DNA of 64,000 nucleotides from Taxawa tesnikishii (nom. ined.) (taxonomy: Eukaryota; Ascomycota; Dothideomycetes; Dothideales): positions 2,728,001 to 2,792,000 of the forward strand of contig JAPDRO010000001.1 of assembly GCA_030247885.1 (NCBI GenBank), in the 5' to 3' direction. The translations under genes and the position numbers were made by a program. The notes beneath the pieces are model-generated. The model saw only the letters and a program-made list of their open reading frames with translations, ran no database searches and was not told where the DNA came from. Each line of letters starts with the position of its first letter. Position 1 is the stretch's first letter. Positions 6,538 through 59,108 of the stretch are shown in pieces.

Positions 6538-9500
6538 ATGGCGTCCGGCGCGGGTGCCGGTGGCATCTTCAGCCGCGGAGGCTCCGGAAATCAGAATACT
6601 ATGAGAGGACTGGTGTCCTTCATTGCAGACCTACGAAATGCTCGAGCACGCGAATTGGAAGAGAAGCGCATCAACAAGGAGTTGGCGAACATACGGCAGA
6701 AGTTCAAGGGCGGAAGTCTGAGTGGCTATGATAAGAAGAAATACGTCTGCAAGCTGCTGTACATCTACATTCTGGGGTGGAACGTCGACTTTGGACACCT
6801 TGAAGCCGTCAATCTGGTCTCGGCGAACAAGTACTCGGAAAAGCAGATTGGATACCTGGCCGTCACCCTGTTCCTCCACGAGCAGCATGAACTCCTGCAT
6901 TTGGTGGTGAACAGTATCAGAAAGGACCTGATGGATCACAACGAGCTCAACAACTGTTTGGCGCTGCACGCCATTGCGAACGTGGGTGGTAAAGAGATGG
7001 GTGAAGCGCTTAGCGGAGACGTGCATAGACTGCTCATATCTCCGTGAGTTGATGTGCGCTGAGAGAATCGCCGATTAGACACTGATATCAGCGCAGGACA
7101 TCGAAACCTTTCGTGAAGAAGAAGGCTGCGCTAACACTGCTTCGCCTTTACCGGAAAGCGCCGAGCATTGTCCAAGCAGAATGGGCCGAGCGGATAATAT
7201 CTATCATGGACGATGACAACATGGGTGTGGCGCTCTCAGTGACTTCCCTCGTCATGGCTTTGGCTCAGGACGCTCCAGATCAGTACAAAGGTAGCTACGT
7301 GAAGGCAGCGCAACGATTGAGAAAGATTGTGGTTGATGGGGAATGCGCGTCGGATTATCTCTACTACAAGGTGCCATGTCCGTGGATGCAAGTCAAACTA
7401 TTGCGGCTGCTGCAGTATTTCTCGCCTTCTGAAGACACCCACACACGAGGTTTGATTAGGGATTCACTCCAGCGGATAATGGACAATGCCATGGAGATGC
7501 CGAAGAACGTACAACAGAACAATGCGCAGAACGCTGTGCTGTTCGAGGCCATCAACCTGATCATTCACTTGGACACGGAACAGGAACTCATGGTACAGAT
7601 GTCATCCAGGCTTGGCAAGTTCATCCAATCGCGAGAAACAAACGTACGGTACCTAGGACTAGAGGCCATGACACACCTTGCAGCTCGGGCAGAGACACTG
7701 GATCCCATCAAGAAGCACCAAACCATCATCATTGGTTCTCTGCGGGACCGGGATATCTCAGTGAGGCGGCAAGGATTGGACCTCTTGTACAGCATGTGCG
7801 ACGCCTCAAATTCTCGGCCAATCGTCGCGGAGCTATTGAAATACTTGCAGACTGCAGACTATGCGATCCGAGAGGAAATGGTCCTCAAGATTGCGATTTT
7901 GACGGAGAAATATGCCACAGACGTACAGTGGTATGTCGACATCTCTCTCCGGCTCATTGCCATGGCTGGTGATCATGTCAGCGACGAGGTCTGGCAGAGA
8001 GTCATCCAGATCGTGACCAACAACGAGGAGCTCCAGGTTTACGCAGCATCTAACATATTGGGATATATCCGCGCTGAGCAGTGTCACGAAACGCTGATCA
8101 AGATCGGAAGCTATCTTCTGGGTGAATTCGGACATCTGATTGCCGACAACCCTCACAGTAGTCCGATTGAGCAGTTTTTGGCTCTGCAGTCCAAGTTTAA
8201 CGGGTGCTCTCCGGGTACGAGGGCAATGATGCTCTCAGCCTTCATCAAGTTCGTCAATCTTTTCCCTGAGATCAAGCCGCAATTGTTGCAAGCTTTCCAA
8301 GCCTACAGCCACACCCTAGACTCGGAGCTGCAACAGAGAGCCTGTGAATACCTGACCCTGGCGACAATGCCCACCGATGATTTGCTGCGAACCGTGTGCG
8401 ACGAGATGCCACCATTCCCCGAGCGGGCGTCGGCTTTACTCTCACGACTGCACTCGAAGCAAGCGGGAACGGGCGACAAGCGGACGTGGGTCATCGGAGG
8501 CAAGGATGCCAACAAAGACCCCAAGGAGGTCGATCTTGCACGCAATGCTACCCTCAAGCGGACTTTTACAAATGGCGCACCGACCAATATTGCAGCGCCT
8601 AATGGTCCTCAAGCTGATGGCGCTTCTCACATAAATGGCACGAATGGCGTCAGTAACGGCGATGGGGTGAAGTCGCCCACAGGAGATCTTCTGGGTCTCG
8701 ATATGTCTGCGCCTAACCTTGCCAGTGCACAACACCTTTCGCCGGGTTGGGAACCCGGATACCAGCGTCTGCTCCTGCAACCCGAGGGCGTGCTCTACGA
8801 AGACGGACAGATCCAGGTTGGTCTGCGGTCCGAATACCGCGGCGAAATGGGCTGCGTGATCCTATACTTCACCAACAAAAACGCTTTCCCAATCCATTCC
8901 TTCACCACCACCCTGGACAACCGGTCCGCGGACACGCTCAAACCGGACATCAAATCCCTGCCCGAAACGACCGTGCAGCCGGGCGGCCAGACCCAGCAGA
9001 TGATCATGTTCGAAGCCCGCAACGTCTTCTCCAACCCCCGACCATCCGCATAAGTTACCTGGCGGGGGCGCTGCAGGCGCTGACGCTGCAGCTCCCCGTC
9101 GTGCTGCACAAGTACATGGAAGGCGCGCAGCTGTCGGCCGACGACTTCTTCAAGCGCTGGAAGCAGATTGGCGGCGCGCCGCGTGAGGCCCAGCGCATCT
9201 TCGCTAGCGGCGACGTCGGCGCCCAGCGCACCAGGAACATTCTCGAGGGCTTCAAGTGGGGTGTCTTGGACGGCGTAGACCCGAATGCCAGGAACTTCGT
9301 CGGCGCTACCGTACTGCATACTAGTGCCGGTGGCAAGTTTGGCTGTCTGTTGAGGTTGGAGCCGAATGAGGGGAACAAGGTATGTCGCTGTGTCCCATCC
9401 CCTGTAATGCTTCCTGTTGCGATACTGAATGTGCCGTCAGATGTACCGCGTCACGATCCGAGCCACCGACGAGAGCGTGTCTCCCGTGCTCATGAGTTAC

Positions 9501-13951: not shown

Positions 13952-16081
13952 ATGTCTAGCAAGCTCGACCAAAGCCTCGATGACATCGCCGGCGCCCGCC
14001 GTGCCAGTGCTCGTCGCAACACTCGCCGTGGAGGAAAGACAGCCGCTCCTGCTGGAGGAGTAACAAAGAACACTGCTACCAGGGCCTCCAAGGCACCAGC
14101 CAAGGCAGCAGCACCTGCTCCTGTCCAACAGACCCGTGGAGAGAGCAAGATCATCGTCAGCAACTTGGTGAGCAATCGTCGTCACTCATTGTCGCCAGAT
14201 CACAACTAACACCACATTAGCCTGATGATGTGAATGAGCAGCAGATTAAGGTACGTTGACCGGAGATGGGCCGAACGACATGACTTTCATCGACTGCATG
14301 CGATCGTACCTCTATCCCTACGAGTCTTCTCCCTTGGATTCTTTATGCGAGCTTTACACGAACCTCGTGATGGCCCTGTTGGGTACATTACCAGACCGGC
14401 GACTCCCTCTAGCCCATTGCTGGCTTGCAAAGCTCAATGCCCGGCTGAAATGAGGTTGAGAACGCACTTCAATGCATAAACCTACACTGGCATATGCGGC
14501 TGCCTGGCAAGCAGACCGTTCAGATAAGGTGCAGAGGATAACGGTCATATGGCGCGAAGCAATGCTTCTGCACAAATACCAACCTGCGTCGGTGAGGGGT
14601 ACGCCGTAAGCAGTGTTGAGGAAGAGCACCAGTGAGCAAAGCAGTGGAGACAGCATTGTCCCCGACAGTTTCTCTGGACACCGTTCGGCGACTTTGTACA
14701 CCTGAGATCCGGAGCACTGCGGAGAGGACCGCTCGGATGACCTGGGGACGTTCTTTTCCTCCACACCGTCACCTTCACCACCCATCAGCCGTACTGCAGT
14801 CCGGCTCTGACTTTGACAGTTGCAACCAACCCTGGGCATTTGGTTCCTCCTCATCCAGCTTGGCACGCTCCAGTTCAGATCCTCCACCTTCCATTATGTC
14901 GACATCGGCAAACAAGCATCTAACCCGGAATTGATAGGTGCTTCAACGACCGGCATGAATTCGGATCTGAACCTGGCCTTGGGATTTACTAACCTTCACT
15001 GCTTGCTCATTGGTGCTCGGATGATCTTGATCTGGGCCGGTGTCCGTTGGGGTACTCTCTTTGCTACTCGACGTATTGCCACAGCTCCGTGCTCCAACCG
15101 CCGTCTGGAGTCTTCCTTATCACTCGTGCGATTTTACCTTCCAGAAGTGGACTGACGCGATCTTTTACCCCCAATAGGAATACTTCGGTACAGCAGTCGG
15201 AGCCGTCAAGAAGGTTCTGCTCAACTACAACCGCAATGGACGCAGCACTGGCGTTGCCAACATCATCTTCGCTAAACCAGGAAGCGCTGCGGAAGCCGCC
15301 AAGACATACAATGGAGTCAAGGTGGATGGAAAGCCAATGAAGGTACTGCAGTTCAACCCATCCCCATGCGCGGTCAGTCTGCTGACCCACTCTAGATCGA
15401 GGTCATCGTTGGTGCCCAGGCCGTTGCTGCCCCACCAGCACCCAAGGGTCTCGGCGAGCGCATCTCGTAAGTGCTCCTTCCCCTCACCCCTCCCCTGTAT
15501 TATCCTTTATCCATATATTTATACCTATACAGCAAGCCCAAGGAGGCCGCAAAGCCTAAGCCCGCCCAAGCCGCCAAGCCAGCAACTGCTAACGGCGCCG
15601 CCTCTACTAGCACACGCGGCAAGGGAGGACGTCGCGGTCGCGGAGGCCGCCAGGGTCGCCCCAAGACCAAGACTGCTGAGGAACTCGACGCTGACATGGC
15701 AGACTACTTCGAACCCGGTAGGTGGTCGCAGACAAAATCTCACCACATGCCGTGTTCTCTACAGGCCGTCGGCTGAGCGATTTGACTGCTTGCCGCAGTG
15801 CTGCCTTCTAGCAGTGCCTTGGCCGTGTAGCAAACATTTGTGCTCATTGACGGATCCTCCACGGACCCCTTTTCTAGGGGTTCCCCATCTGTTTGACGGC
15901 CTGCTGAGAACACAAGCGCTTGTTTCTTCCCCTCGCAGAGCCCTGCATCATGATGGCGTACTGACTCATCCTAGGTACCGGCGCTGCTGCCGACGCTGCA
16001 GCTGCTGCCCCAACCAACGGTGCTGCTCCCGCCGCCGCCGCGCCTGCCAACGAGGCCGTCATGGAGGATGAGATCATGTAG
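13952..16081 (+). CDS. YRA1: mRNA export adaptor Yra1/ALYREF (REF family)
   Basis: Yra1 joins the TREX complex, binds nascent mRNA and hands it to the Mex67 exporter. Six exons (13952-14167, 14221-14250, 15178-15342, 15396-15466, 15533-15717, 15975-16081) give 257 residues. Order: an N-terminal UAP56-binding motif (MSSKLDQSLDDIAGARR), an Arg-rich tract, an RRM (ESKIIVSNLPDDVNEQQIK, then LLNYNRNGRSTGVANIIF), an RGG region (KGGRRGRGGRQGR) and an LDADMADYF C-terminal box. Exon 2 is only 30 nt. Intron 2 is 927 nt and intron 5 is 257 nt; the others are 53-66 nt. The long intron inside the RRM-coding part recalls S. cerevisiae YRA1, whose inefficiently spliced intron allows autoregulation. Confidence 0.93.
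14251..15177 (+). other. 927-nt intron 2 of YRA1
   Basis: The intron starts GTACGT and ends CCCCAATAG with an ACTGACG branch-like site about 25 nt upstream. It separates the micro-exon ending EQQIK from the exon starting EYFG, so removing it exactly restores the RRM. It is over ten times the local norm. Open frames inside it are short and resemble nothing. Weak resemblances to the introner blocks occur near 14395-14470 (CTTGC...CAATGCCC, then TTGAGAACGCAC), so it may be partly built of old intron-like insertions. Confidence 0.7.
15718..15974 (+). repeat. Introner-like element: intron 5 of YRA1
   Basis: A 257-nt phase-1 intron (GTAGGT...CATCCTAG). It shares ordered blocks with the wall-protein introns at 57103-57375, 57727-57978 and 58414-58669: CAGGCCGTCGG (from 15762), GACTGCTTGCCGCAGTGCTG (from 15784), TGTAGCAAACA, and GACGGCCTGCTGAGAAC (from 15895). 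CAGGCCGTC at 15762-15770 is the exact reverse complement of GACGGCCTG at 15895-15903, so the intron can close a long stem. Homology between introns of unrelated genes is the mark of introner-like elements. Confidence 0.75.
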
Positions 16082-27265: not shown

Positions 27266-27267
27266 TA

Positions 27268-27378
27268 TTCTCGCGTTCAAAAGGTCCGGGTCTCGAGCGG
27301 GAGAATCCGCTATCCGCCCCGCCAAAAACGCGTTTTTGGCCCGGTTGATGCCTATTTTCATTGTTTTTCTAGATATAG
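27268..27378 (+). repeat. Left terminal inverted repeat
   Basis: 111 bp beginning TTCTCGCGTTCAAAAGGTCC and ending near TTTTTCTAGATATAG. It pairs with 31286-31396 in inverse orientation with about six mismatches. At least three (CTATCC/CTGTCC, GCCTATT/GCCCATT, and GGCC/AGCC) are transitions of the kind RIP makes. The preceding dinucleotide is TA. Confidence 0.92.
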
Positions 27379-29929
27379 TCAACGAATACTACTATTATAG
27401 CTATTATACGTATCTAGAGTGTTATTTTACTATAGATTCTACTTCTTTTAATACTCTAAAGGTTAGTAACTAACTAAAGAACATCTTTATAAGTACTTAG
27501 GAAATTAATAACTTTACTAACTAGATACGCGAAGGTACTATTAATATAGACTACTAAGCTACTACTTAGTTATAAAAGGAGTCGTATATAGTTAAAACTA
27601 ATAAAGAAGATAAGGTAAAGGTTATAAAAGAAGTAAAAGTAATTATAAAAGAAATAAAAAGTAATAAACTAGTTTAAAAAGTAACTTTAAAAGGTATAAA
27701 AGATAGTATTAAGGCTACTATATACTACTAGAAGGCTATTTTAGCTAGTAAAAGAAGCGAAAAAGTAGTTTCCTTTAATAATAAAGTAGAAGAGAATTTT
27801 AAAAGGATTATAAAGTACTTTATATATATTAATACTAGTAAGTACTTTATAAGGCTAGCTAAAGAAGTACTACTTATACGCCCTTAGAGAATTTAACTAA
27901 CTATAAATAAGCTTCTAAAGGGTACTTAGAAGAATATAAAGGCTAGGAAGAGAGTTACTAGGACTTAGTTAATAAAAAACTAGTAATAATAGACGCCTTA
28001 ACTAACTAGAAAGTAGTTTATACTTAGTAACTTATTTAATAACTCGTCTAATAAGCGGCCGCTTATAATACCTACGTAGTTAACTTCGAAGAGATAGTTA
28101 AGTTAATAGTTTAATTAAAAGTAGTTATTACTTATACCTTAATTATTAAATCGAACTACTTAGTAAAAGTAACGTACTAGTTAAAAGAAAAAGGAAAAAT
28201 TATAAAGGAAGAAGGAAGAGTTATAAAAGAAGAAGGACGAGTTACGTTAACTATTAACTAAAAAAGAAGCCTTAGAAACTACGCCTTTTACTTAAAAGGA
28301 TAGTAATATAAGTAAGACTCGAATAACTTTAGTATTACTTTAAAGAACTTCTCGGCCTTATTATAAGCTAGTTATACTTATAAAGATAAAGTTTAAGGCT
28401 TACTATAATTACCGACTTATCTTTTATATTAATAGCGTATTAAATACTACTTTTAAGGACTTCTAAATAAACTAATATAAGCGTACTAACGCTACTATTA
28501 TAAAGGATACTACTTTACTTAATAAAATAGAGTCTAAGTCCTTTTACTACTATAAACGTATAACTATTATTACCTTAATAATAGCTATACGTCCTCTAAG
28601 TACTATTATAGTAGGGTAGCTTCTACTTCTCTATTACTACCTAAATAGTTAAGTACTACTACGTAACTCTATATTACGTAACTTTACTCCTTATATTTAC
28701 CTTTCGAAGGATAATAGCGAGGGATTTATTATAAGAATAGAAACTAGAGATAGTTACTTATTACTACTACCTTTCCTTTCTATTATACTATAATAAATAC
28801 TATTAACACGCTAGATAACTAAGAAGAATAATAGAGTATTATTAACTATATATAATTTAACGAAGCTACTAAATATAAAGCTTACTTTATTATAGTAGTA
28901 AATATTTATTCTTTTAACTAGATAGATCGCCTTTAAAACTAGTATTAACTCTAGTATTAGTTTTATTACCTTAATTACCTTAGTTACCTTAATTACTTTA
29001 GCTATCCTTTAGTAACTTTACTACTTCTTTTAATACTCCTCTAGTATAACTAAATTAATAGCGTAAAGAGAAGTAAAAGAAAAGAAAGGAAGTTAGTAAG
29101 AAATTAAAGAAATAGTCGAAGTAGTATTATAGTAAGTAAGGCTCTTTTTAAGAGGAAATCTAAAAGTACTATAGCTATAATAATAGCTAGTATTACTACT
29201 AGTCTTATATTATAGCCTATTTTTACTATCTTAATTTATTTACTAGTTAAGATAAGTACTTTATTATCTTATTATAAATAAGTAGCTACTAGAGAAGGGT
29301 AATTAATAATAGTATAAGTAGTATAGTAAAGAAGCCTTTAAAGACTATTATTATAAATATCCTAAAGGACTATAAATAAATACTCGATAAGACTATAAAG
29401 AGTAAGTAAAAGCGTTAATAGTAATAGTTATAAAATAGTAGTTTATTAGTTATATATAATATTACTAGATAGAGTAGCTAGTAACTACCTTAATAAGTAC
29501 CTTAATTAAGTCCTTAACCCTCTTTTTAGTAGACCCTTTTAGCTAGCTAATAATACCTTTATATTACTTAGAGTTTCTAGTAAGTAGCTCTCTACTAGTT
29601 ACTACTATAAATCCTTTATAACTATAGCTTTTCTTTAACTAGTTAATATTATAAGTTACTTTAACTATATAGTAGAAGTTAAAGAACTATTATAACTTAC
29701 TAAAAGAAGGTTTTTAAACCTTAAAGCTAATAAGGAGAAACTAAGATAATAAGCTAAAGGAAATTATTAAGGAATATAGTATTCGTCGTATTATTCTTAA
29801 TTACTTACTAGTCTATATATAAAGTCTAAGCTACTATATTTCTATAAGTAATAATAATAGTACTAGTAGTAGCGAAAAGGCTTTAAATAGTACTAGTAAC
29901 TAGGATAGTAATAGTAGCGAAGAGGAAGA

Positions 29930-30090
29930 TAAGGACGAGGTAATAGTACGTAATATTTAAGGATAAAAATAAGGATAAAAATAAGATAAGTTAAAAGACG
30001 AGTTAAAGGACGAGTTAATAGTACGTAATATTTAAGGATAAAGACGAAATAAGTCGAAAGACGAGTTAGTAATACGTAATATCTTATAGT
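29930..30090 (+). repeat. Degenerate tandem repeat inside the RIPped element
   Basis: Three imperfect copies of a unit containing GACGAG...TAATAGTACGTAATAT with AAGGATAAA spacers lie between about 29933 and 30085. They survive RIP well enough to be recognised. They probably derive from a repeated charged stretch or a subterminal repeat array of the original element. Confidence 0.6.
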
Positions 30091-31285
30091 ATTTTAATAG
30101 TAATTTCGAACTTATATATAACTCTTTTTAAATAACTCTCTAAAGTCTACTTTCTCGTCCCTTTAAAAGTAATTATAAGTATCCTTAAGGAACCTTTTAA
30201 ACTACTCTTTATAATACTCTTTACTATAAATTAAATATAGCGCTTAATTACGCCGTAGTTACTACTTTAATAAATAGAAGGTTAACTTAATAGAGTTATA
30301 GTCTAATAAGTAAGGTAATAGAAACTTTACTTTAACGTTAAACTAACTATAAAGTACCTTTACCTTTATTAGCTAATAAGTTTTATAGTTATCTATTACT
30401 ATTTACTTTCTAAATCCTCGTAATTATAGTAATATACGTTACTCTAACTAGTAAAGGAATATCTCGGCTATAATAAAGCCTTTAATAACTAAGGTAATAC
30501 CCTCTAAGTAGCTATTAATAATAAGCGCTAATAAGATTAAATACTAAGTAATATACTTTAAGATTTTAGTATTAATATATAGTTAACTTCTTAGTAACTA
30601 GCTATTACGCTTATATAGCGTTTTTTCGCTACTATTACTTTCGTTTACGTATATTAACTAGTCTTTCTTTATACTTTATAGCTACTTATTAAAAATAGTA
30701 CGCTAGATCGAATTACGCTAAGTAGTTATACGTTACTATATCTTATTAATAAAGTCTAGTCTTACAAGCGTACGAGATACTATAGGCCTTAATATCTAGA
30801 CGTTAAAACGTATAGTTAACTCTTATATTAACTTATTTTAATAAGTATTTTACCTTATATTATCCTTCTTAAAAAGTAACTATATAATATAATCCTTTAT
30901 CTTCGGAGTAATAACTAGTAGTCTTCTACCCTTTAATAGTATAGCTAAAAGTCTTATAATACTTTTATATACGTTAAAGTTTTCCTTTTTATAATAAAAC
31001 GCTATCTTTAAGCCTTTACCTTTAAATAATACTATAATTTAACTTCTTTTAAACTAGTTATCTTCGAAATACTCTTATAGCCGTACCTTATCGTAAGGGG
31101 TAAAGGGAGCTATAGTAATTACTAGTAAATAGTTATCTTAACTAGTTATAACTTATAGTAGCTATAATAAATATTTATATATTATAAAAGGCTATAAAAC
31201 TCGTATAACTTAGTAGATTTACTCGCTAACGTTAAAAGAGCTTAGAGACACTATATTTGGAAGGTATTACTTTATGGTTGAAGGG

Positions 31286-31396
31286 CTATATCTTGAAAAA
31301 CAATGAAAATGGGCATCAACCGGGCTAAAAACGCGATTTTGGCGGGGCGGACAGCGGATTTTCCCGCTCGAGACCCGGACCTTTTGAACGCGAGAA
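31286..31396 (-). repeat. Right terminal inverted repeat
   Basis: The inverted partner of 27268-27378, ending CTTTTGAACGCGAGAA next to a TA. It retains CpA and TpG sites missing in the interior, so the RIP boundary lies just inside the TIR at about 31250-31285. Confidence 0.92.
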
Positions 31397-31574
31397 TACC
31401 TCGCATCCTCCACGTCTGTCAGAACCTTGTATAACCAATCATCACACAAGTATATTGCCGTGACGCCTATCTTGCATGCGACCATCAGCGATGGCGTGCT
31501 TGCTACATATCTTATGCGACAGCTTGGTACTCATTGAGATAATATAAAGGACCTCAGCCGCCTCTTAGTCAGTC

Positions 31575-40600: not shown

Positions 40601-43491
40601 CAATCAGACTCTTTCAAGAGCCACGCATCCAACCCGTCGATCGACTCGTCGAGTGGCAGGACGGTAAATACTAGCTCCACTCGCCGATCCGAGAACGTAG
40701 CGACACTCGCGCCTGAGACTGTAGCGCATCTGATACCAGAGGAGGTGGCCGGCATGACCTTTGACAGGGACAAGCAAAAATGGATCCGAGCGAGGAGCAC
40801 CAAACGGTCGCAGCGAGCAACACCTACACCACACTCACCAACTCCGACGAGCAATGTTACCAGTGACGATGACCCCTTCGGCGACATTCCTGACCTCACG
40901 GTGGACGAGGTCAAAGAACTGCATCATATCCAGCACGCGTGCAACTCCCAGGCGCCAACTGCCCTCCAATCCAGTAAAATTTCCGCCCATGATCAAGCTC
41001 CGGATGTGCAAGAAGGCAGCACTGCAGTGGAAAACCGTACGACGTCCCAGGAGACGGTAGTCGCCCGTCCTGTCACGAGCGATAGCAAGGCCATTCCCCT
41101 TTCAATTCCAGTTCTGTGCCTTCCAAGAACTCAGCCTTTGAATCCAGTGAGCCACAGATTGAGACGAGGGCAACCTCATGGAGCAACGAGGAGCTTGCAT
41201 GTTTGCAGAGGAGGGGCCCGGTGCTGCCCCAGTTTGCGGAGGTATCTACAACGCAAATGACTTGCACCGCATCTGTTGAGTCTGCAGGACCTACTCCCGA
41301 GGAAGAACATAACGAGACCAAATACGGTGAGACCACTTTCTCAGCTATCCAAGATGACTCGCTTCCGCTTGATGATTCCGACACGGAAGAGCTTCCAGCT
41401 TTGCCTCAACACCGGGATCTGCCACCTCATCCTGTTTTTCCAAGCTCTGCTTCTGTATATAGAGGTGCTGCGCGCAATGTCACCCGCAACATGTCCCTGC
41501 GCAGGCAAACTCTGGACCGTGGCTTCTATGCCAACGTTCAGCACGACCAAAGCGAGCTGTCTCTTATCGCCGAACTGCCTGACAAGCGACTCATGAGCCT
41601 TTCTTTGAGCGTGTCTCGGCCATCCGGTCAGAGCCAGGAGCTTGCTCTACCTTCTTCTCCCTCGACGAGGGTCGACGCTACGTTATATCTCAGCGATCTG
41701 CCTGATTTCACCATGCATCAGATTGATGAGGCCAAGCCCTCCGAGCAAGCTCTCGCGAAGCGCGTTGCCCAGCATGAGATGCAGGCAGCCAGTGACCGTT
41801 ACTCTCTGTCAGTGCAGGGGCTTGTGAAAACCCTGACGGACGTCGAGCCTGATGAGCCCTACTGGGAAGACATCAAGGCCTTGAACCTGCACGACAGAAG
41901 TCTTGGTTCTTTGCACGGTCTTGAAGATTTCTGCACGCACGTGCAGGATCTGAATATTTCGAACAACGAGGTGTCGCAACTGAAAGGAGCTCCTGCTTCC
42001 ATCAGGCGCCTCAATGCGAGGTCGAATGCTCTCAGCAGCTTGACGGCCTGGGGTCATCTGATGAATCTTCAGTACTTGGATATCTCTTACAACAACCTGG
42101 ACAGCTTGGATGGTCTTTCTTGTCTCATTCATTTGAGAGAATTGAGAGCGGATGGCAACAAGATCACCTCGCTGAGAGGGATTATGGAGCTGGACGGGTT
42201 GTTGAAGCTCAGGTTACGGCAGAACAATGTCGTCTCTGTGGATTTTTCAGGGTGTCAACTGTAAGTTCTTCACGAAAAGTGGCCGTATGCTCGAACTGTG
42301 CTGACTTCTCGCAGTAAACGCTTGGAAGAGCTAGATCTTAACGGTAACGGGCTTACGGACGTTCGCAACACTTGTGCTCTGCCGATGCTGGAGCGAATGA
42401 TTCTAGGTACGTCAATCACTCAGCCGTCCAACGTGGACCTTGACTGACAACATACAGACGACAACAATTTGGAGTTGTTCTCCACAAGCGAGCACTCAAA
42501 GCAAGAGTGTCCTCGAATAAAGTCTGTATCCTTCCGAGCGAACAGACTTTCTTCGCTTGATGTTTCTGCATATCCAGGCCTACACTACCTCAACGTGGAT
42601 CAGAACCGACTTGCAACTGTTCACGGCCTCGAAGGCCTGCAGCATCTCAACACTCTTTCGATGCGCAAGCAGGGCACATCAAGCGCCACGCCATCAAACG
42701 CCGGTTCTATTTTCATGCAACAAATCCACGTACGCTCCCTCCATCTCTCCTCAAACCTCATTCCATCCATGGATCTCCCACACTCCTATCACAGCATCCA
42801 GCACCTTGAGCTCGCATCTTGCGGCCTCCGAGACCTGCCCTCAGATTTCGGTCTCCGCTTCCCAAACCTGCGATCCTTGAACCTCAACTTCAATTCCTTG
42901 CGCGACGCGCGTCCTCTGCTCAACATCGAGCATCTCTCCTCGCTTTACCTAGCCGGCAATCGCCTAGACAAGCTCCGTAAAACCATTGCCACGGTCTCCA
43001 AAATGTCGCATCTGCGCCTTCTAGATGCACGCGACAATCCCTTCTCGCAAGGCTTTTACCCTCCCACCTCCGCAGCGTCAAAGGATCGCCAACTCATCCC
43101 CTCGCGGACCTTCGCGCACGCCGTCGAAGCCGACTCGGACGATGAGAGGAAGGTGCAGCAGATCGCAGCACGCGCGTACTTGCTCCCTCGAACAGACGTG
43201 GCTGCAGATGCGGAACACCTCGCACGTCTGGACTCAGACCGTCGTCTGCGCCGCAAGGTTTACGAGCTCCTTCTCGCGAACAGTTGCAACAAGCTCGCGG
43301 AGCTGGATGGTCGGGCCTTCGACTGTAGTGCCGCGCTGGTCAAGGATGAGACGTGGGTGCAATTGATTAAGATTGGGGTGCTGAGGAAGTCGGGGTCGTT
43401 GCAGAGACCGGACAGCGCGGCGAGCCGAACTAGAGAAGAGGGAAATGACACGGTGGCGAATATCGTAGAGGGGTATGGAGATGAAGAGTAG
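37679..43491 (+). CDS. Spindle-pole-body SIN scaffold with leucine-rich repeats (Cdc11/SepM/Nud1-like)
   Basis: About 1,902 residues. Exons 37679-42260, 42315-42406 and 42458-43491 with 54- and 51-nt introns. The N-terminus carries the signature TLEWKKRLVGGEVGYGDQTD (about residue 128) followed by LFGPSGLENIF, known from Cdc11/SepM proteins. A long disordered phospho-rich region follows, then C-terminal leucine-rich repeats (ALNLHDRSLGSLHGLEDF, LQYLDISYNNLDSLDGLSCL, LEELDLNGNGLTDVRN, LRSLNLNFNSLRDARPLLN). These scaffolds anchor the septation initiation network at spindle poles and couple mitotic exit to septation. Continuity from SDSKAIP to PFNSSSVPSKNSAFE needs one extra C in CCCC at 41096-41099. 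As written the frame closes near 41260. Confidence 0.82.
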
Positions 43492-56835: not shown

Positions 56836-59108
56836 CTACCATCCGCCGGAGCCGTAGCCGCCATCAGTGGTGGAGCAGCGCTTGCTCGACCCGGTAACAG
56901 TAGTGGTATATTTGGCTTTGGAGACGTAGCGGGTGACGCTGGCGGATGGGGAGCTAGCGACAGTCGTAACCGTCGCGCTACCGACCGAGGTCGAGTAGTC
57001 GGTGACGGTGACGGGGATCGTGGTGGTGCCGGAGAAAGTGCTCGTGCTGACGCCTGAGCTGACGCTGGTGCTGTAGCTGGTGCTGTAGCCAGTCGTGGTA
57101 CCTGAGAGGGGGAGGTCAACATAAGGTACTATTACAATGCAGGCGTCTGACAGTGGAGGAAGCATGCGCCAGCGTTTCAAGAAGCCGTCGAGCGGACAGA
57201 GAAACCCTCTGATGGGACGATCCGTAGAGGATTGGTCCGAGGATGCGAGTGTTTGCCACATGCCTGGACAAAACTGTGACACAGCATTGCGGCAAGCACT
57301 CGACGATCACTTCCGACGGCCTGCTGACAGCACCCGGCATGCGATGGTGGTTTATTGGATGACACAAAAACGTACCAGTAACCGTCTGCACGATCGTAGT
57401 GGTGTATACGTATGGGCTGGTGTAAGCGGAGCTGTAAGTTGAAGTGTACGTGTTCTTATCAAATTGTCAGCTTCCATCGTCGTCGCTGTCAATACAAAGT
57501 GACATACCGTGTAGGAAACGGGAGTCTCGTAAGAAGTGTAGCCGGTGAAAGTTGATACAGCGTTGTAAGGTACGGAAGTTGTTGTCGGGACGGTAGTCGT
57601 GTATGTAGTCGGCCGGTAGACTGTTCTTGTGCTATACACGGTCGTCAAACGGTGACCAATGGAGGTCTTGGTGAAGGGGATCCAGCTGCAGGTGCTACCA
57701 TGCGATGTAGTCGTGGAGCTGGTGCCTAGCAGGAGTCAGTATACTATCAGGATTCTTAACTCAGCTCACTGGGTCAGGATGCTTTCGTTCTCAACAAGCC
57801 GTCTACGGGTGAACCGCCGTCCGAAGTGGCCGTTCACAGAAGCGCAATGTGTCAGATAGACATCTGCTCGCTGCCCGTTGCAATTACGGTCAAGGGCATT
57901 GTGGCAAGTTACCAAATGATCCGACGGACGACATGTTGAGAACGTGATGCTTGGCATGTTTTTGTATGTAAAACTTACTCGGGGTAGACGAAGTTCCAGT
58001 AGTGGTCGTGTGGGTCGTGCTGCTGCTGGTGGTCACAGTGGTCGAAGAAGAGGAAGTCTTCGATGTTGTAGTTGACGTGCTGGTGGTGCTGGTGGTGCTG
58101 GTGGTGCTGGTGGTGCTGGTGGTGCTCGTAGTGCTCGTAGTGCTCGTAGTGCTCGTGGTGCTCGTGGTGCTCGTGGTGCTCGTGGTGCTCGTGGTGCTCG
58201 TGGTGCTGCGGGTGCTCGTGGTGCTAGGGGTAGACGACGTGGAAGTCGTGGAAGACGAGGAGCTGCAACCGTGACCACCATAACCACCAAGGCAAGTGGT
58301 CGAGCTGCTGCTGGTGGTAGGAGGGTGACCAGGGGTGGAATAAGTGGTCGAGCTGCTGGTGGTGGTGGGAGGGTGACTAGGGGTGGAAGAAGTCGTCGAC
58401 GAAGACGTGGTACCTGGCAGAGGTTAGAAGATTACGAAAATTCTCGGCATAGCTCAACGGATTCGTTAGATGCCAGTGTTCAACATATGCCGTCCAGCGG
58501 ATGGAAGCTCCGCTTGGAAGACGACCTATAAAAAGGCCAGTCCATCATACAGCCATCTGCTTGCCGCCTAGTACAAATTCTCGTAAGGAGGCATTGCGCG
58601 GCAAGCAGTCAACCGAACGGCCTGCCAGAAACACCGACATCTAACAACGCTCTGTCGGATGCAACATACTGGTACTGGGTGGGCCTGGAGGGGTGCTATA
58701 AGTTGTCGACGATGTTGTTACAGACGTGCTGGGCGTGCTGTAACTATGAGAGTACGACCAAGTCGTACTGCTCGTGCTTGGCGGGCCTGGAGGGGTGGAA
58801 TGAGTGGTCGACGAAGTCGTAACAGAAGTGCTGGAAGAGCTGCTGTGACTGTGGCTGTACGGGGTCGAGGTTGACGAAGTGCTGGGCGGGCTAGCAGGGG
58901 TGCTGGGAGTGTGAGTCGTAGATGGAGTCGACGAAGAGTGGGTGGACGACGAAGATCCACCGTAACCGCCTCCACCATAACCGGGGAGGGTGGAGGAGGA
59001 GGAGGAGCTGGAGCTGCCGTAGCCTCCGTTGCCATAGCCCCCTGGTGCGGCGTTGACCATGCCAGAGGCCAGGAGAGCCAGAACGGCGAAGTTGGTGGAG
59101 TACAACAT
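56836..59108 (-). CDS. Secreted Ser/Thr/Gly-rich cell-wall or adhesin-like protein
   Basis: Exons 59108-58670, 58413-57979, 57725-57508, 57454-57376 and 57101-56836 keep frame throughout and encode 478 residues. The N-terminus is a signal peptide (MLYSTNFAVLALLASGMVNA, then APGGYGNGGYG). The mature part is low complexity: Ser-rich runs, STPPGPPSTSS modules, a (TST/STT)n array encoded by a 9-bp DNA repeat, and Tyr/Thr/Val-rich C-terminal modules (YTTTVPTTTSVPYNAVST, YSTSYSTSVSSGVSTST). It should be heavily O-mannosylated. I see no clear C-terminal hydrophobic GPI signal (the end is GGYGSGGW). Three of its four introns (252-273 nt) are homologous to each other and to YRA1 intron 5; the fourth is a normal 53 nt. 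Role in adhesion or wall is inferred. Confidence 0.8.
57103..57375 (-). repeat. Introner-like element: intron 4 of the wall-protein gene
   Basis: A 273-nt phase-1 intron (GTACGT...CTCTCAG). In transcript orientation it carries CATGCCGGGTGC, CAGGCCGTCGGAAG, GAGTGCTTGCCGCAATGCTG, TGTGGCAAACA, CTCGACGGCTTCTTG and CTGCATTGTAATAG, in the same order as in YRA1 intron 5. GCATTGCGGCAAGCACTCG (57284-57302, + strand) and the GCGAGTGTTTGCCACATGC near 57246 form a near-perfect inverted pair. Confidence 0.8.
57727..57978 (-). repeat. Introner-like element: intron 2 of the wall-protein gene
   Basis: A 252-nt phase-1 intron (GTAAGT...CTGCTAG). Shared blocks in transcript orientation: CCGTCGGATC, AACTTGCCACAATGCC, GAGCAGATG and GTAGACGGCTTGTTGAGAAC. 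The last matches GACGGCCTGCTGAGAAC of YRA1 intron 5. It is more diverged than the others, with a shorter outer stem (CCGTC/GACGG). Confidence 0.75.
58001..58230 (-). repeat. 9-bp tandem array coding for TST/STT repeats
   Basis: About 16 imperfect copies of GTGCTCGTG/GTGCTGGTG (+ strand) run from about 58077 to 58221 within exon 2 of the wall-protein gene. Because the unit is a multiple of three, copy-number change would lengthen or shorten the Thr/Ser stalk without breaking the frame. Confidence 0.85.
58414..58669 (-). repeat. Introner-like element: intron 1 of the wall-protein gene
   Basis: A 256-nt phase-1 intron (GTATGT...CTGCCAG). Transcript-strand blocks: GGCAGGCCGTTCGG, GACTGCTTGCCGC, AAGCAGATGG and GGACGGCATATGTTGAAC. 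CTGCTTGCCGC (58557-58567, + strand) and GCGGCAAGCAG (58598-58608) are perfect 11-bp inverted repeats, giving an internal hairpin. Confidence 0.8.

What the first reader, a model, noticed from the sequence alone, without database searches (positions are those of the whole stretch)
57103..58669. Three introns of one secreted-protein gene are copies of each other
The wall-protein gene has four introns. One is an ordinary 53 nt; the other three (58669-58414, 57978-57727, 57375-57103) are 252-273 nt and share ordered blocks: (AG)GCCGT(T)CGG, then GCTTGCC(G/A)C..AATGC, then GACGGC(T/A)T(G/A)TTGA. Random introns should not align. This is the hallmark of introner-like elements, introns that multiply as units, described in several dothideomycetes. 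Finding three in one gene suggests recent multiplication, or local duplication that started with one of them.
Basis: partly seen in the sequence, partly recalled or inferred. Interest (0 to 1): 0.87.

Follow-up and report, generated by a model that had tools for sequence, protein, structure and literature searches.

The report
Self-copying folded introns in fungus
Three long introns of one secreted-protein gene and a fourth in an unrelated mRNA-export gene are old, diverged copies of one folded intron, which looks like a fungal introner-like element (an intron that spreads to new genes).

Summary
Introns 1, 2 and 4 of the wall-protein gene (256, 253, 274 nt) are homologous end to end. A profile built from these three found a fourth full-length copy 41 kb away on the other strand (15718-15974, E 2e-25): the last intron of a Yra1/ALYREF-type mRNA-export gene. 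Leave-one-out scores are 44-85 bits; the best shuffle reached 9.4. All four are phase 1, sense, GT..AG, and four to five times longer than eight ordinary introns modelled here (51-66 nt). The first six downstream exon bases are shared (GYACCR, 4 of 4); upstream bases are not.
Best reading: a diverged introner-like family. "Recent multiplication" (48-62% identity) and local duplication (intron 4 is closest to the export-gene copy; exon flanks unrelated) are not supported. Genome-wide copy number, gain and splicing in RNA could not be tested. The kind is known; the one-sided exon motif and the conserved fold are the unusual parts.

The parts
56836..59108 (-). Secreted Ser/Thr-rich wall-type protein gene (478 aa after splicing), host of three copies
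   Evidence: in-frame splicing of four introns; no Pfam match; stop codon checked
58414..58669 (-). Family copy 1: intron 1, 256 nt, phase 1, branch-point-like CTAAC 10 nt before the 3' splice site
   Evidence: folding z -3.9
57726..57978 (-). Family copy 2: intron 2, 253 nt, phase 1, CTGAC 10 nt before the 3' splice site
   Evidence: folding z -2.9
57455..57507 (-). Ordinary 53-nt intron 3, not a member
   Evidence: no profile match there
57102..57375 (-). Family copy 3: intron 4, 274 nt, phase 1, TTGAC 14 nt before the 3' splice site
   Evidence: folding z -1.8
13952..16081 (+). Yra1/ALYREF-type mRNA export factor gene (257 aa), host of the fourth copy
   Evidence: spliced frame; RRM_1 E 1.1e-13 and FoP_duplication E 6.2e-6; best PDB matches are REF2, THO complex subunit 4 and ALY
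15718..15974 (+). Family copy 4: last intron of the Yra1-type gene, 257 nt, phase 1, CTGAC 10 nt before the 3' splice site
   Evidence: E 2.2e-25 with a model that did not contain it; leave-one-out 85.4 bits; folding z -3.0
58467..58642 (-). Folded core of copy 1 (outer stem plus arms)
57778..57952 (-). Folded core of copy 2
57163..57342 (-). Folded core of copy 3
15745..15922 (+). Folded core of copy 4
15975..15980 (+). Shared 3' exon hexamer GYACCR beside copy 4; counterparts at 58413-58408, 57725-57720 and 57101-57096 on the minus strand
   Evidence: 4 of 4; random phase-1 sites reach this number of pair matches in 0 of 20000 draws

Best explanation
The four introns are diverged members of one introner-like family: a spliceosomal intron that was copied, complete from donor to acceptor, into new exon positions of at least two unrelated genes. 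Each is an ordinary U2-type intron at its ends (GTANGT donor, CTRAC-like branch point 10-14 nt before YAG) around a roughly 180-nt core that folds into a closing stem (19 aligned pairs in two helices) with arms inside. Shown here: shared descent, two unrelated host genes, sense orientation, agreement of the homology with the splice sites, a shared fold with compensatory changes, and a shared downstream exon hexamer. Inferred: that they are spliced in vivo; that they were gained by insertion; and that copying went through the excised folded RNA (reverse splicing into transcribed DNA) rather than DNA cut-and-paste. I put the RNA route at about 0.5-0.6 given that the family is introner-like.
For: Fourth copy in an unrelated gene found by a blind profile. 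Leave-one-out 44-85 bits against a best shuffle of 9.4. All four are phase 1, restore the frame when removed and carry in-frame stops if retained. They are 253-274 nt against 51-66 nt for the eight ordinary introns I modelled in four genes; one further modelled intron is 927 nt and unrelated. Four copies in 64 kb, none outside introns and none antisense, with sequence and structure models on both strands (the better reverse-strand hits lie on the same elements). 90.4% of pair cells form standard pairs (35-42% when slid) and 13 cells have both sides changed against 6.7 in shuffles, 0 of 500 reaching it. Paired columns are 66% identical, unpaired core columns 44%. Fungal introner-like elements are described as stably folded and found only co-linear with transcription (PMC3443670 passages) and as long compared with regular introns of 50-55 bp (PMC4457414).
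Against: Only two host genes are known and no genome is held, so hundreds of copies cannot be shown. Identity is far below that of active families. The shared 3' exon hexamer is not predicted by seamless insertion. No relative was found in 138 loci fetched by pattern from viral and prokaryote collections, which are not fungal collections. Four sequences give little power to covariation: the count of further pair types is not unusual (102 of 500 shuffles reach it), and in the outer stem alone the number of pairs changed on both sides is not either (56 of 500). No RNA evidence.
Confidence: 0.8

Rival explanations
1. DNA-type introner: a non-autonomous inverted-repeat transposon that inserts with a short target duplication and is spliced out.
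For: Internal inverted repeat (outer stem) in all four. Copy 1 is flanked by a perfect 6-nt direct repeat, and by my codon alignment its exon module has two more codons than two of the three sibling modules without an intron (sequences). Six-base similarity across the four junctions is 15 of 24, P 0.03; seven-base P 0.012. One-sided exon motif.
Against: The repeat is not terminal: it starts at nt 31-38 and ends 53-64 nt before the 3' end. Six lengths were tried and the other four gave P 0.57-0.98, so the duplication signal does not survive correction; only 1.3% of phase-1 sites of that gene have a perfect 6-nt repeat, but Ser/Thr repeats raise 6-nt similarity generally. Ascomycete introners were reported without TSDs or TIRs (PMC9860276 passages).
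Confidence: 0.2
2. A conserved intronic structured RNA with a host function (splicing control or an embedded non-coding RNA), retained in place.
For: Structure kept with compensatory changes although loops have diverged. One host is Yra1-like; the yeast YRA1 pre-mRNA carries intronic elements that regulate it (PMC2864733, start of abstract in the listing). Conserved structures in fungal introns are known (PMC8216456 passages).
Against: No Rfam family. Three copies in a Ser/Thr-rich wall gene have no evident reason. Predicted donor-to-branch-point distance is no shorter than in shuffles (52, 33, 43 and 86 of 100 shuffles as short or shorter); splice-site accessibility is mixed.
Confidence: 0.12
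3. Local duplication of an exon-intron unit inside the wall-protein gene.
For: The gene does contain exon repeats, for example 91 bp at 76% just upstream of intron 1. A quartet cannot exclude a root on the export-gene copy.
Against: A copy exists in an unrelated gene. Flanking exons of the three introns are not related to each other beyond random pairs. Intron 4 is closer to the export-gene copy (62%) than to its neighbours (55%, 48%).
Confidence: 0.04
4. Chance or compositional similarity of long introns.
For: Single pairwise alignments are only modestly above shuffles.
Against: Leave-one-out and blind discovery of copy 4.
Confidence: 0.01

Closest known systems
Introner-like elements of Dothideomycetes (Fulvia fulva, Dothistroma septosporum, Zymoseptoria tritici)
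   Same: Spliceosomal introns repeated in unrelated genes, long, stable predicted fold, sense only; genes with two elements reported (PMC4457414, text parts 1-3 of 4; PMC3443670 passages)
   Different: Here identity is 48-62%, copy number is unknown, and a 3' exon hexamer is shared.
Sister stwintrons and cropped sister introns of Hypoxylaceae/Xylariaceae
   Same: Multiplying introns with inverted repeats and without target duplications (PMC8469720 passages; PMC12403724 passages)
   Different: No nested [D1,2] donor in any of the four. The repeat here is internal. Theirs lack exon pattern and phase bias; here phase is 1 in 4 of 4 and GYACCR is shared.
DNA-transposon introners (Micromonas and other lineages)
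   Same: Many homologous introns; in some families insertion adds or removes codons (PMC9860276 passages)
   Different: No terminal inverted repeats and no established target duplication here
Zipper-stem introns of yeast (RPS17B, RPL7B)
   Same: A stem between the 5' splice site and the branch point (PMC2536676 outline and abstract; PMC12311795, start of abstract in the listing)
   Different: Those are single introns, not a repeated family (recalled); shortening of the distance here is not beyond shuffles

Membership tests
Fungal introner-like elements | Homologous introns in unrelated genes | tested here: met
   Two unrelated host genes, four copies
[quoted passage not shown]
   No genome held. 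Near-identity is absent among the four (48-62%); families with much lower identity, thought to have stopped multiplying, are described (PMC4457414)
Fungal introner-like elements | Canonical spliceosomal intron that splices out | tested here: inconclusive
   GT..AG, branch-point-like motif, frame restored; no RNA data
Fungal introner-like elements | Longer than regular introns | tested here: met
   253-274 nt against 51-66 nt in eight ordinary introns
Fungal introner-like elements | Stable predicted RNA fold | tested here: met
   z -3.9, -2.9, -1.8, -3.0; shuffles as stable 0, 1, 10, 0 of 200
Fungal introner-like elements | Only co-linear with transcription | tested here: met
   4 of 4 sense; no other copy in 64 kb
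Fungal introner-like elements | Recent gain: absent in orthologues of relatives | not testable with these tools
   No fungal genomes in the collections
Fungal introner-like elements | Preference for AG/GY sites (van der Burgt et al. as cited in PMC8469720) | tested here: inconclusive
   GY after the intron 4 of 4; AG before it 0 of 4
[D1,2] stwintron | Internal intron splitting the donor (AG followed by TRNG[TA] inside) | tested here: not met
   No such site in 4 of 4
DNA-transposon introner / MITE | Terminal inverted repeats | tested here: not met
   Inverted repeat begins at nt 31-38 and ends 53-64 nt before the 3' end
DNA-transposon introner / MITE | Target site duplication | tested here: inconclusive
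   Copy 1 has a perfect 6-nt repeat, others 3 of 6; P 0.03 at 6 nt, best of six lengths 0.012

The most novel reading that the evidence does not exclude
A folded mobile intron whose insertion is not seamless: each copy arrives with, or duplicates, a six-base downstream exon tag (GYACCR, two codons' worth, always phase 1), and selection keeps the fold after insertion. This would be an ascomycete introner with a DNA-like or hybrid integration signature, against the published view that ascomycete introners integrate without one.
Probability: 0.2. Interest if true: 0.72.

Novelty: new member of a known kind. Interest (0 to 1): 0.52.

Why it matters
How new spliceosomal introns arise is open. In ascomycetes the copying route is inferred largely from what is missing (no target duplications, no terminal repeats; PMC9860276 passages). 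A family whose members are half diverged yet keep a covarying fold, and which share bases on one exon side only, offers two concrete tests: whether the fold is needed for copying or for splicing, and whether insertion adds exon bases. Both start from the whole genome and a few relatives.

Tried and rejected
Own-genome search: no genome is held for this window. All 138 fetched loci (1.26 Mb) were screened with the four-copy profile at default filters; the only match up to E 10 was E 0.23 (the first 7 also), so I take these as chance pattern matches. Rfam: none at gathering threshold over the window. At E up to 10, the stretch 57050-58720 gave one 14.8-bit miRNA-family match lying outside the three introns of the family, and 15690-16000 gave one 19.9-bit Giardia snoRNA match on the opposite strand of copy 4 (E 0.05), both far below their cut-offs. 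Ab initio gene finding and an intron census by script failed, I think because codon bias is weak; I kept six introns that they proposed (14168-14220, 15467-15532, 7044-7096, 41037-41089, 42261-42314, 42407-42457) only after splicing gave open frames. Full palindromy of the core: not above shuffles for copy 1, intron 4 and copy 4 (325, 67 and 103 of 500) and weak for copy 2 (18 of 500). The reverse-strand matches of the structure model (E 5e-9, 1.5e-7) lie on the elements themselves and I attribute them to the outer inverted repeat. Fold-as-shortener: not supported. Splice-site accessibility: donor unremarkable (26, 8, 39 and 34 of 60 shuffles as open), branch point more open than shuffles in intron 4 (0 of 60) and copy 4 (6 of 60) but not in copies 1 and 2 (15 and 48 of 60). 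[D1,2] stwintron: rejected. Intron letters searched in papers: three strings, 8 papers matched one of them, judged from the titles in the listing as chance, none on introners. Papers on covariation in introners: 2,008 papers hold two of the four terms; none of the 12 listed holds 'introner'; this does not prove absence.

Full report
What is there. The gene on the minus strand from 59108 encodes a 478-residue secreted Ser/Thr-rich protein once four introns are removed: 58669-58414, 57978-57726, 57507-57455 and 57375-57102. Pfam gives it no domain. Introns 1, 2 and 4 are 256, 253 and 274 nt; intron 3 is 53 nt.

Is it more than chance? Single pairwise local alignments are only moderately unusual: 51, 16 and 46 of 2000 dinucleotide shuffles score as high. 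A profile made from the three introns and run over the 64-kb window returned, besides its own sources, one further full-length match at 15731-15972 on the plus strand, E 2.2e-25; the next candidate had E 0.28 and lies on the reverse strand of that same match. Redefined by its splice sites, the fourth copy is 15718-15974. With each copy left out in turn, the other three recover it with 49.2, 44.3, 58.7 and 85.4 bits; the best score of any shuffle was 9.4.

The fourth copy. It is the last intron of a gene at 13952-16081 that splices to a 257-residue protein with an RRM and a C-terminal FoP_duplication match. Its best solved relatives are REF2, THO complex subunit 4 and ALY. It is therefore a Yra1/ALYREF-type mRNA export factor, unrelated to the wall protein, 41 kb away and on the other strand. 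This takes the finding beyond one gene.

Anatomy. All four introns are phase 1, have GTANGT donors, a CTRAC-like branch-point motif 10, 10, 14 and 10 nt before the 3' splice site, and stop codons in frame if retained. Eight ordinary introns in the same two genes and two further genes, checked by splicing to open frames, are 51-66 nt; one other intron, the second of the export gene, is 927 nt and does not match the family. This is a hand-made sample of 13 introns, not a census of the window; scripts for a census failed. Sequence and covariance models over both strands find no fifth copy.

Fold. The minimum free energies are below the mean of shuffles for all four, z -3.9, -2.9, -1.8 and -3.0, with 0, 1, 10 and 0 of 200 shuffles as stable. 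The same plan recurs: an outer stem closing a core of about 180 nt with arms inside. On the four-copy alignment 90.4% of the pair cells form standard pairs, against 35-42% when the strands are slid; ten of 42 pairs have a change on both sides in at least one copy (6.1 in shuffles, 6 of 500 reach ten); 13 such cells compare with 6.7 (0 of 500); the covariation score is reached by 1 of 500; the number of further pair types is not unusual (102 of 500). For the outer stem alone the figures are 93.3%, four of 19 pairs (56 of 500 shuffles reach it), 6 cells against 2.6 (7 of 500), and further pair types 170 of 500. Paired columns are 66% identical, unpaired core columns 44%, and the two intron ends outside the core 51% and 53%. 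The structure was derived from these same sequences, there are only four of them, and relatedness can inflate such counts, so this is good but not overwhelming evidence that the fold was kept by selection.

Age and route. Pairwise identities are 48-62%, so the copies are not recent. Intron 4 is closest to the export-gene copy in 92% of block bootstraps, and the quartet pairs them in 88%; a four-sequence tree cannot be rooted, so this is support, not proof, against a common local origin of the three. The exons beside introns 1, 2 and 4 are no more alike than random 90-base exon pairs of that gene, which speaks against duplication of exon-intron units.

The insertion sites. Downstream of the four introns the exon reads GTACCA, GCACCA, GTACCA, GTACCG. 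Random phase-1 sites from the same two coding sequences are as alike over six bases in 0 of 20000 draws by pair matches and in P 0.0002 by invariant columns; when the random sites must also start with G, P is 0.0018 and 0.007. The next twelve bases (P 0.26-0.49) and the six upstream bases (P 0.29-0.49) show nothing at phase-1 sites. GYACC occurs at 1.8% of positions of the wall-protein coding sequence and 0.5% of the export gene's. The motif was noticed before it was tested. Either insertion prefers R|GYACC, or the mobile unit brings or duplicates these six bases. For the second: copy 1 is flanked by GTACCA on both sides, and its exon module has two codons more than two of its three sibling modules without an intron; the third is longer and differently built (sequences, my codon alignment). 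Against: target-duplication similarity over all four is only P 0.03 at six bases and 0.012 at best among six lengths tried, and the region is repetitive.

How it most likely works. Fungal introner-like elements are spliceosomal introns, longer than regular ones, that occur in many copies in unrelated genes, only in the sense of transcription, and fold stably (PMC4457414, text parts 1-3 of 4; PMC3443670 and PMC8469720, passages). They are thought to copy through their RNA by reverse splicing; ascomycete families were reported without target duplications or terminal repeats (PMC9860276, passages). The present family agrees in most respects that could be tested; the exceptions are the high identity of active families, the AG half of the AG/GY site preference (0 of 4), and the shared exon bases. 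I take the chain to be: transcription, splicing, a folded excised intron that persists, insertion into exon DNA of a transcribed gene, then slow decay in which the stems outlast the loops. Every step of that chain is inference. The last point may reflect the needs of splicing or the history of active source copies. Predicted folding does not bring donor and branch point closer than shuffles do, so a simple zipper role is not shown.

What is known and what is new. The kind is known. No named family could be compared, because published consensus sequences sit in supplements that could not be read here. The points I did not meet in the papers seen are a fourth copy in a Yra1-type gene, compensatory changes in diverged copies, and a one-sided exon hexamer; one search for introners with covariation terms listed none, which is no proof of absence.

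Limits. No whole genome is held for this window, no fungal genomes are in the collections, and no RNA data are available. The organism was not identified; that it is a fungus rests on gene and intron structure (my judgement), and the class is unknown.

Noticed in passing
27266-31398: A 4.1-kb block, mostly about 25% GC where most of the window is about 50-60%, bounded by 113-bp inverted repeats 94.7% identical, with TA at both outer borders: looks like a Tc1/mariner-type transposon (type name recalled) degraded by repeat-induced point mutation (inferred).
   Followed up: partly
14251-15177: The second intron of the Yra1-type gene is 927 nt, in a gene whose other introns are 53, 53, 66 and 257 nt. 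The yeast YRA1 intron is regulatory (PMC2864733, start of abstract in the listing), so this may be a conserved autoregulatory intron.
   Followed up: no
58670-58861 and 58077-58225: Exon repeats in the wall-protein gene: a 91-bp duplication at 76% and about 16.6 copies of a 9-bp unit. Intron 1 sits at a module boundary; three sibling modules have no intron there.
   Followed up: partly
57777-57953 and 15746-15921: The structure model also matches the reverse strand of copies 2 and 4 (E 5e-9 and 1.5e-7), apparently because the outer inverted repeat is symmetrical.
   Followed up: partly
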